A stretch of 10,270 nt of DNA from Candidatus Altarchaeota archaeon (lineage in GTDB: Archaea > Altiarchaeota > Altiarchaeia > IMC4 > DAOVSA01). The notes below the pieces were generated by a model that was not told the origin of the DNA, searched no databases, and worked only from the letters and a program-made list of their open reading frames with translations. How positions within the stretch are numbered: position 1 is the first letter of the stretch; each line of letters begins with the position of its first letter. Location of the stretch: contig DAOVSA010000011.1 in NCBI GenBank assembly GCA_030633635.1, positions 1 to 10,270 of the forward strand, given 5' to 3'. This document shows, in pieces, positions 3,387 to 8,794 of the stretch. The position numbers and the translations under genes are program-made.

Positions 3387-3450
3387 ATTGATGTATGTGT
3401 GGGTTAGATACCTGATCGTTTGTATCAATTTTATCCTAAACGGGGGGATA

Positions 3451-3460
3451 TTTATAAATA
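3451..3460 (+). promoter_or_regulatory. TATA box upstream of the hairpin cluster and PIN gene
   Basis: tttataaata follows a G-rich run (3442-3447) and is the best TATA match between the SpoIIM-like gene and the PIN gene. It predicts transcription from about 3480, giving a leader of about 290 nt before the preferred PIN start. Weaker TATA-like stretches at 3512-3521 and 3552-3561 would give shorter leaders that still include the hairpins. Confidence 0.4.
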
Positions 3461-3586
3461 AACCTTGCATTGTTTTTTATTACTTCGATAACATTTAGAG
3501 ATTACCCATAGTTATATTTTAGCCATTTTAAATTTTAATAATGATTATAATGATTATATTATCGAACATTAAATTTTTAAATATTC

Positions 3587-3763
3587 AAGAAAATCTTCTT
3601 CGAAAACACGAAAAATTTCCTATGGGAATTTTGGTGCGAACAAATCAAAGATTTGTTGCACAATTAGAGCCAAAGGGCTCTAATTCGTGTCCAATTAGTG
3701 ACGAAGTCACTAATTCGGATTTTAACTGTTCTGTACTTGAGATTACAGAACATCGAGTAAATC
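3587..3763 (+). repeat. cluster of consecutive hairpins (palindromic repeats) ahead of the PIN gene
   Basis: Successive stems are as follows. (a) aagaa/ttctt, 3587-3600, short. (b) aaaatttcc 3612-3620 with gggaatttt 3624-3632, loop tat, one G-T wobble, extended by cac 3607-3609 with gtg 3634-3636. (c) aacaaatc 3639-3646 with gatttgtt 3650-3657, loop aaa, extended by tgc 3635-3637 with gca 3658-3660 around one bulged base. (d) aattagagcc 3662-3671 with ggctctaatt 3676-3685, loop aaag. (e) aattagtgac 3693-3702 with gtcactaatt 3706-3715, loop gaa. (f) tgttctgta 3727-3735 with tacagaaca 3744-3752, loop 8 nt, with outer pairing of gatttta 3718-3724 and taaatc 3758-3763. Stems d and e share the same outer half (aattag/ctaatt) and both are followed by cg. 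This looks like a palindromic repeat family or a structured leader RNA. Confidence 0.85.
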
Positions 3764-3768
3764 CCAAA

Positions 3769-4233
3769 ATGCAAAAATTAAAGACGAAAATAGGAATAGA
3801 TGCACCTGTTATAGTCAGTATAATCAAAAACCCGGAAGCGTTGTGGTATCTGGTGGAGTCAAATGTGTTTACTGCCGATTCCGGGCTCTGTATCTGCAGA
3901 AAGAATCTGGAGAGGGCAAAAGATATTTTGATGACTAAATACGATTATGCGGAGGAGGATGCACTCAATTCAGTTAATACGGCGATTAAGGATCTAAACA
4001 TCGATGTGCTGGATCTAGATCCGGTTGATTTTTCCCTGGCAAATTCCCTGCTAAAAAAATACGCAAAACATGGATTGTGCGAACCAGATAATTTCATTTT
4101 GGCGTGTTTGATCAGAAATCAGGTCGAAATTTTTTACACCACAAATAACGCTCTCATAAAGGCAGCCAGAGAGGCAGGAATAAACCCCAGAAAGTTTCCA
4201 ACCAGAGAAGAAATACGGATGAAAAAGGGGTAA
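3769..4233 (+). CDS. PIN-domain protein (VapC-like fold, predicted ribonuclease)
   Basis: A 154-residue protein with PIN-domain architecture. A first strand ends in the acidic residue D11 (KIGIDAPVIVSI), where PIN proteins have DTNVL. A helical middle follows (about 20-100), then the late acidic motif EPDNFILACLIRN (105-117, D107), and a final strand IFYTTNNALIKAA (121-133). There N127 stands where most active PIN nucleases have aspartate (T-x-D). Active members are Mg2+-dependent RNases, often VapC toxins. With one expected acid replaced by asparagine, activity is uncertain. I chose ATG 3769 because the fold begins a few residues later. The in-frame ATG at 3541 would add 76 residues, much of them palindrome-derived. 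No convincing ribosome binding site precedes 3769. No VapB-like antitoxin gene is adjacent on either side, which is unusual for a VapC toxin. The gene converges with the DUF5612 gene. Confidence 0.6.
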   Translation: MQKLKTKIGIDAPVIVSIIKNPEALWYLVESNVFTADSGLCICRKNLERAKDILMTKYDYAEEDALNSVNTAIKDLNIDVLDLDPVDFSLANSLLKKYAKHGLCEPDNFILACLIRNQVEIFYTTNNALIKAAREAGINPRKFPTREEIRMKKG

Positions 4234-8720: not shown

Positions 8721-8794
8721 TCTCTATTTAGATCTAAGGATCTCTATTGATCTATCTCTATTGATCTATCTCTATTGATCTATCTCTATTGATC
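8721..8794. repeat. 14-bp tandem repeat array between convergent genes
   Basis: tctctattgatcta is repeated perfectly three times (8741-8754, 8755-8768, 8769-8782), with a fourth partial copy (8783-8794). A diverged 20-bp variant precedes them (8721-8740) and contains the 10-bp palindrome ttagatctaa (8728-8737). Every perfect unit has a GATC. The array fills most of the 98 bp between the flippase stop (8705) and the TFB stop (8804). No T-rich terminator is evident on either strand. Confidence 0.9.

What the first reader, a model, noticed from the sequence alone, without database searches (positions are those of the whole stretch)
3587..3763. Run of five or six back-to-back hairpins directly upstream of a PIN ribonuclease-like gene
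Seen in sequence: perfect or near-perfect stems of 8-10 bp (3612-3632, 3639-3657, 3662-3685, 3693-3715, 3727-3752) follow one another with little spacing and 3-4-nt loops (the last has 8 nt). Two share the outer half-stem aattag/ctaatt. Chance is an unlikely explanation. Known: PIN proteins are often RNases regulated through RNA or protein antitoxins, and palindromic repeats also occur as dispersed mobile units. Inference: this is either a structured leader or antitoxin-like RNA that the PIN protein binds or cleaves, or a palindromic repeat family that landed here. No VapB gene is adjacent, which leaves room for RNA-level control.
Basis: partly seen in the sequence, partly recalled or inferred. 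Interest (0 to 1): 0.7.

Follow-up and report, generated by a model that had tools for sequence, protein, structure and literature searches.

The report
Nested mobile double-hairpin repeats in archaea
The run of hairpins looks like three small mobile DNA pieces, each a pair of hairpins, inserted one inside another; relatives are scattered through genomes of several related uncultured archaea, and the gene it happens to precede is probably incidental.

Summary
The five hairpins are real (RNA fold z -8.5; 4 perfect stems in 177 nt, at most 2 in 200 shuffles). The stretch is a dispersed repeat in its own genome. Comparing copies resolves it into three nested double-hairpin units: U1 (~62 nt), opened by U2 (57-59 nt), opened by U3 (52-53 nt); copies without U3 and copies of U1 alone exist. 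U1 is found in 5 of 29 genomes of the phylum, own included (Altiarchaeota-type), with compensatory changes (22 double-changed, 3 one-sided, 17 unpaired of 378 cells). Insertion is seen twice: U1 sits in the L18-S5 ribosomal gene junction of G015 but not at that junction in 11 other genomes; and in the complete genome G003, copies of one IS200-type transposase gene carry double-hairpin inserts of 51-57 nt or multiples, one nested in another. Best reading: small non-autonomous mobile DNA, kept by shape, that grows by inserting into itself, like organellar double-hairpin elements and bacterial REPINs. The mover is unknown. A link to the PIN-like gene is unlikely, though one other copy precedes a NYN gene.

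The parts
3585..3606 (+). U1 left part: TCAAG end and hairpin H1 up to the point where U2 is inserted
   Evidence: Alignment with single U1 copies L002 1442-1506, L005, L008, L013, L022, L035, L036, L037, L039
3607..3636 (+). U2 left half: CACG + hairpin (3611-3632) + GTG
   Evidence: Present without U3 in L004, L005, L006 (two copies) and L021
3637..3689 (+). U3: 53-nt double hairpin (3639-3657 and 3662-3685), between the two halves of U2
   Evidence: Present in window, L002, L003; absent at the same point in 5 of 8 aligned copies
3690..3718 (+). U2 right half: TCC + hairpin 3693-3715 + bulged C + GG
3719..3758 (+). U1 right part: rest of the H1 3' arm, hairpin H2 (3727-3752), CATCGAG end
3769..4233 (+). 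neighbouring weakly PIN-like ORF (154 aa from ATG 3769); not part of the element
   Evidence: PF01850 E=0.075, below cut-off; no homologue in 30 relatives; low-confidence fold

Best explanation
The hairpin run is a composite of three small mobile DNA units, each a double hairpin of about 52-62 nt. U1 landed between the SpoIIM-like gene and the PIN-like ORF, U2 inserted into hairpin H1 of U1, and U3 inserted between the two hairpins of U2. Shown: dispersed copies; nested presence and absence; an orthologous empty site for U1; insertion into transposase genes in a relative; compensatory changes. Inferred: the order of events in the window; that the units are non-autonomous; that hairpin shape rather than a fixed sequence is recognised or kept; and that they move as DNA, perhaps as folded single strands, by an enzyme acting in trans or by replication-coupled copying. 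Any effect on neighbouring genes is incidental.
For: Dispersed in the own genome (U1 model 17 matches, reverse-strand duplicates included), next to varied genes. U1 alone, U1+U2 and U1+U2+U3 forms coexist. U1 in 5 of 29 genomes of the phylum. Orthologous empty site: in G015 U1 fills the gap between L18 and S5 genes; in 11 of 11 other genomes with S5 the upstream ORF overlaps S5 or ends within about 11 nt of a possible start, and no hairpin pair is there (the upstream ORF was identified as L18 by family search only in G015). G003: double-hairpin inserts of 51, 53, 54, 54, 56 and 57 nt and of 108, 110 and 165 nt at 8 sites of one IS200-type element, including a 52-nt one nested in the 56-nt one. 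A further G003 subfamily sits at 9 places in about 6 distinct flanks. Covariation on 21 copies: 95.5% of cells paired, 7 pairs and 22 cells changed on both sides against 2.5 and 5.6 in shuffles and at most 2 and 4 when slid; 3 one-sided G-U cells. A copy in G007 is 89% identical to one in the window's genome although ArgG is 56% identical. No reverse transcriptase in 4 carriers tested.
Against: No mover identified. Y1 (IS200-type) transposase is found in 2 of 5 carriers and 3 of 24 non-carriers of the phylum, and not in the own genome, which is only 71% complete. No fixed target duplication or target motif across inserts, by eye. End 5-mers match on both sides in 8 of 21 copies (shuffled mean 5.1, p 0.02). 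Not all length differences between the IS copies are clean double hairpins: L048 has 30- and 16-nt pieces in one diverged stretch and a further 16, L049 has 28 and 43, L055 has 16, and L047 splits into 50, 86 and 63. In the covariation count the number of pair types is no higher than in shuffles (10 against 10.8), and on the first 9 copies pairs changed on both sides were not above shuffles (4 against 3.6). No empty site is known for the window's own insertion. One NYN neighbour. Cross-species similarity could be constraint.
Confidence: 0.85

Rival explanations
1. A structured leader or antitoxin-like RNA that regulates, or is cut by, the PIN-like protein downstream.
For: Position about 10 nt upstream of ATG 3769; strong fold; conserved pairing; one other own copy lies 34 nt before a NYN gene.
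Against: 35 proteins at 17 U1 copies in four other carriers include no PIN or NYN; those carriers lack a homologue of the protein; internal insertions change the structure between copies; few G-U pairs among the changes.
Confidence: 0.05
2. REP/REPIN-like elements in the strict sense, moved by a REP-associated or IS200-type HUH transposase in trans.
For: Paired hairpins in opposite sense with single-base bulges (read); a bulge matters in E. coli REP recognition (PMC8266576, passages); no constant target duplication; Y1 transposases in G003 and G015.
Against: Y1 family in only 2 of 5 carriers. The intact G003 enzyme scores 40 bits for the RAYT model, cut-off 80. 86 distinct 8-nt arm cores among 126 hairpins do not fit recognition of a fixed stem sequence. 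No GTAG-type foot noticed by eye.
Confidence: 0.25
3. Host-made structure: replication slippage and template switching at palindromes create, perfect and multiply the hairpins, with no transposition enzyme.
For: U2 and U3 lie at a palindrome centre or a hairpin junction; stems pair although sequences differ; no fixed target repeat.
Against: Discrete unit size (51-57 nt) at unrelated sites, with recurrent subfamily ends; cross-genus copies 89-94% identical.
Confidence: 0.2

Closest known systems
Short palindromic repeats of Volvox carteri mitochondrial and plastid DNA (PMC2670323, passages read)
   Same: About 50 nt on average, loops of 3-5 nt, intergenic, both orientations, 'inserted within another palindromic repeat' to make larger composites
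   Different: Organelles of a eukaryote; palindromes with shared motifs; here an archaeal genome with double-hairpin quanta and many stem sequences
Double-hairpin elements of fungal mtDNA and repetitive hairpin-forming elements of sponge mtDNA (PMC2800124, passages read; the Allomyces work only as cited there)
   Same: Double hairpins, insertions in genes and spacers, complementary substitutions
   Different: Mitochondrial; sponge doubles ascribed there to tandem insertion of single hairpins; here the double hairpin is itself the inserted unit
REP / BIME / REPIN with RAYT (PMC3116915, PMC8266576, passages read)
   Same: Prokaryotic, extragenic, paired inverted hairpins, bulges in some, compensatory changes in the spacer, no gene of its own
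   Different: REPs carry a conserved motif (GTAG most often) and REPINs conserved ends, and lie with a RAYT; here no such motif noticed, insertion is nested, and no matching enzyme was found in 3 of 5 carriers
IS200/IS605-derived miniature elements (from recall)
   Same: Hairpins, no fixed target duplication
   Different: No likeness noticed by eye to the end hairpins of the G003 IS200 element

Membership tests
REP/REPIN | hairpins with a conserved foot motif (GTAG/CGTC type) | tested here: inconclusive
   None noticed by eye in the copies of A1, A2, A4 or the G003 inserts; no motif search was run
REP/REPIN | RAYT (REP-associated Y1 transposase) in the genome | tested here: inconclusive
   No Y1_Tnp in own genome, 71% complete; G003 enzyme is IS200 type (132 bits, cut-off 55), RAYT model 40 bits below cut-off 80
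REP/REPIN | two hairpins in inverse orientation form the unit | tested here: met
   Inserted quanta are double hairpins; bulges on opposite sides in those read
Organellar double-hairpin / palindromic elements (DHE, RHE, Volvox type) | short hairpin-forming unit dispersed mainly in spacers | tested here: met
   13 of 19 G003 clusters outside ORFs of 150 aa or more, which cover 77%
Organellar double-hairpin / palindromic elements (DHE, RHE, Volvox type) | nested insertion into one another | tested here: met
Organellar double-hairpin / palindromic elements (DHE, RHE, Volvox type) | located in organelle DNA / common descent with them | tested here: not met
   Archaeal genome; descent from organellar elements was not looked for
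PIN-linked regulatory RNA | occurs upstream of PIN homologues | tested here: not met
   one NYN neighbour at L003 is the exception
Rfam RNA families | match at gathering score | tested here: not met
   0 matches in the window; best below threshold at 3450-3850: E 0.86 and 4.1

The most novel reading that the evidence does not exclude
A class of prokaryotic mobile DNA defined by shape rather than sequence: the transposing quantum is a 51-62-nt double hairpin whose stems may have very many sequences so long as they pair, which inserts into or beside other hairpins and so builds branching 'hairpin forests', moved by an enzyme or replication process not yet described.
Probability: 0.35. Interest if true: 0.8.

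Novelty: new variant of a known kind. Interest (0 to 1): 0.6.

Why it matters
Nested palindromic and double-hairpin elements are known from mitochondria and plastids, where the passages I read leave open how they move. A counterpart in an archaeal chromosome, with empty and filled sites inside one genome and at an orthologous ribosomal gene junction, gives a place to look for the mover. It also warns that a strong, conserved fold upstream of a gene in these archaea can be mobile DNA rather than regulatory RNA.

Tried and rejected
PIN-linked leader RNA: not supported, with the NYN neighbour at L003 told above. Known RNA family: none. tRNA-like cloverleaf: ARAGORN finds none. Reverse-transcribed element: no RVT_1 in G000, G003, G007, G015; G001 not tested. 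Spread by known viruses: the H2 pattern has 0 exact matches in viral contigs, one strict pattern only. The G025 hit (E 7e-4) was judged chance: no run of hairpins seen at L024. Integron attC sites were thought of and not tested. Taxonomy look-up found no name. A BLAST printout came out empty and was replaced by a pairwise alignment script. A first script on the S5 junction ignored strand and was redone.

Caveats on counts. The hairpin counts (125 perfect, 13 with one mismatch, 37 with two; shuffles 4.0 with one and 31.4 with two) come from regions chosen for holding perfect stems, partly on contigs chosen for hits, so the ratio is inflated. Survey samples are regular steps or arbitrary contigs, not random draws. 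R1 counts include reverse-strand duplicates. A4 holds 21 of the 71 matches; composites, duplicates and weak matches were left out. The tip of H1 was left out of the count because the alignment is poor there. In one search, 27 loci were given; its alignment A3 (31 matches) was not used for counting. One search read one strand (5 of 9 places); one search read all 9, and three of them share flanks, as do two others on one side. The neighbour scan took the nearest ORFs within 500 nt or overlapping at 17 of the 21 A4 copies, all 17 outside the own genome, and 15 proteins at 9 of 10 other own loci; L011 neighbours were not scanned, nor the right-hand neighbour of L009, which is the gene scanned at L006.

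Full report
Observation. The hairpins reported at 3587-3763 are present as described. The stretch folds to -63.4 kcal/mol against -31.7 (sd 3.7) for shuffles, z -8.5. Four perfect stems of at least 8 bp lie within 177 nt; 200 dinucleotide shuffles of the window gave at most two. No Rfam family at gathering score and no tRNA was found in the window.

It is a dispersed repeat. Searching the window's own genome (868,591 bp, 193 contigs, 71% complete) with 3587-3775 gave 24 matches at E up to 10, among them two further near-full copies at 84 and 87% identity. A second query, from a shorter copy, gave 21 matches at E up to 0.1. ORFs were read at 11 loci, the window included (two of them lie on one contig and flank the same gene), and 15 neighbouring proteins were scanned: prepilin-type peptidase, Memo, NYN, RNase P Rpr2, DUF211, GAPDH, S17, peptidase C25, T2SSE ATPase, Toprim, aspartate dehydrogenase, a cell-wall-binding protein, and three without a family. 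The NYN gene at L003 starts 34 nt from the repeat, and NYN is a PIN-like nuclease fold (recall), so two of 11 loci lie before a PIN-type gene if the weak PIN label of the window is believed. At 17 U1 copies in four other carriers, 35 adjacent or overlapping proteins include no PIN or NYN. The window's neighbour is only weakly PIN-like, has no homologue in 30 relatives, and its single-sequence fold is poor.

Anatomy. Aligning copies shows a base unit U1 of about 62 nt: TCAAG, hairpin H1 (AAAATTTYC..GRAAATTTT), TACTG, hairpin H2 (TGTNCTGTAAT NNNN ATTACAGNACA and variants), CAT. Longer copies are U1 with a second double hairpin, U2 (57-59 nt), set into the 3' arm of H1. The window, L002 and L003 have a third, U3 (52-53 nt), between the two halves of U2. 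Five of eight aligned copies, including one from G007, lack U3 at the same point. The window is therefore three nested double hairpins: U1 3585-3606 and 3719-3758, U2 3607-3636 and 3690-3718, U3 3637-3689. Several inner hairpins carry a single bulged base at the foot, on the 3' side in one hairpin of a unit and the 5' side in the other (read).

Who has it. A 25-nt pattern from H2 hit 10 stretches in a collection of 84,980 species: 8 in ND3_Bin_21 (titled Euryarchaeota) and 2 in Candidatus Altiarchaeota CSMAG_1619; none in viral contigs. The tool may leave out the window's own genome. Contig lengths and positions identify ND3_Bin_21 with G015 and CSMAG_1619 with G007. A covariance model of U1 matched 5 of 29 genomes of the phylum: G000 17, G015 43, G001 5, G003 3 and G007 3 matches, reverse-strand duplicates included.

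Hairpin forests. Clusters of three or more perfect stems were 19 in 198 kb of the complete genome G003, 2 in 15 kb of G015, 1 in 24 kb of G007 and 1 in 61 kb of G005. There were none in samples of G001, G002, G004 and G008 (33, 55, 51 and 64 kb), none in 400 kb of four control archaea, and none in 85 kb of own contigs taken in regular steps. The own genome is a light carrier, or its copies were lost at assembly breaks. In G003, 13 of 19 clusters lie outside ORFs of 150 aa or more, which cover 77%.

Direct evidence of insertion. First, an orthologous site: in G015, U1 lies between the genes of ribosomal proteins L18 and S5. In the 11 other genomes searched, the window's own included, S5 is preceded by a long ORF that overlaps it or ends within about 11 nt of a possible start, with no hairpin pair between; I identified that ORF as L18 by family search in G015 only. 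Second, within one genome: G003 has several copies of an IS200-type element. Aligned to the copy with an intact ORF (L042), others carry double-hairpin inserts of 51 (L055), 54 (L049), 54 (L049, L054, L055), 56 (L050) and 57 nt (L049), and multiples of 108 (L047, L048, L049), 110 and 165 nt (L049). L042 itself carries a 53-nt double hairpin absent from L048, L055 and two partial copies in L079. The 108-nt insert is the 56-nt insert of L050 with a further 52-nt double hairpin inside it, so nesting is caught step by step. Some other length differences (16, 28, 30 and 43 nt, and the split alignment of L047) are not clean double hairpins. A subfamily defined by one hairpin occurs at 9 places in G003: three share flanks and two share one flank, leaving about six distinct settings; the partner hairpin differs between settings yet pairs.

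Pairing is kept. On 21 U1 copies from five genomes, 95.5% of 378 cells are paired. Seven pairs show changes on both sides (22 cells) against 2.5 pairs and 5.6 cells in shuffles, and at most 2 pairs and 4 cells when slid; 3 cells are one-sided G-U changes and 17 are unpaired, 7 of them one recurrent C-T mismatch in H2. The number of pair types is not above shuffles, and on the first nine copies alone the pairs changed on both sides were not above shuffles. RNA helices often change through G-U (general knowledge); their scarcity suggests that the DNA hairpin, or an arm-correcting copying process, is what is conserved (inference). In G003, G015 and G007 clusters, 126 hairpins use 86 different 8-nt arm cores.

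Spread. A composite in G007 is 89% identical to one in the window's genome, while the six other own copies in that alignment are 73-78% identical to it; one U1 pair between the two genomes reaches 94%. ArgG is 56% identical between them. Lateral transfer is the simplest explanation; constraint is the rival.

Mechanism. No reverse transcriptase was found in four carriers. Y1 transposases are in G003, G015, G009 (weak), G018 and G021, that is 2 of 5 carriers and 3 of 24 non-carriers, so they do not track the element well in these partly incomplete genomes. There is no fixed-length target duplication by eye, and end 5-mers match in 8 of 21 copies, p 0.02, which is weak. I favour DNA-level movement in trans on folded single strands, with low confidence in the enzyme; a replication template-switch origin remains open.

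Literature. Nine searches listed nothing on such elements in Altiarchaeota; three of them matched thousands of papers, of which 12-15 were shown. RepRanger and a survey of 118,019 genomes, searched for terms and seen in passages, hold no mention of Altiarchaeota. Volvox organelle palindromes, sponge elements and REP/REPIN, seen in passages, are the closest. The library holds only open-licence papers, so absence from print is not established.

Noticed in passing
L047, L048, L049, L050, L054, L055 (G003): IS200-type transposase copies carry double-hairpin inserts; one copy with an intact ORF (L042) remains, itself with one double hairpin upstream.
   Followed up: yes
L177 1501-1566 / L194 1439-1504 (G015): U1 sits in the ribosomal protein operon between L18 and S5, whose first start codon falls in the end of the repeat.
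   Followed up: yes
L011 634-820 (G000 C111): A long composite with inverted rather than direct ends (ATCAAGAAAATTTTCC ... GGAAATTTTTTTGAT) enclosing several hairpins.
   Followed up: no
L011, L025, L026, L027 (G000, G015, G007): A recurrent frame like TGTGGC [hairpin] GACAYRTGTC [hairpin] GCCACA with variable hairpins, apparently another double-hairpin family.
   Followed up: partly
L003 1004-1465 and L004 625-984 (G000): Own copies lie next to a NYN gene (34 nt) and an RNase P Rpr2 gene (90 nt); probably chance, but worth a count in a closed genome.
   Followed up: partly
G000 contigs C95, C98, C167 near their starts: Weak 22-nt repeat matches 28-44 bases from contig ends: the assembly may break at these repeats, so own copy number may be a lower bound.
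   Followed up: no
window 3541-4233: The frame of the PIN-like ORF stays open through the whole hairpin composite, giving an apparent 76-residue extension that is probably spurious.
   Followed up: no
window 8723-8794: Tandem repeats of about 14 nt (TCTATTGATCTATC) downstream of the membrane-protein gene.
   Followed up: no
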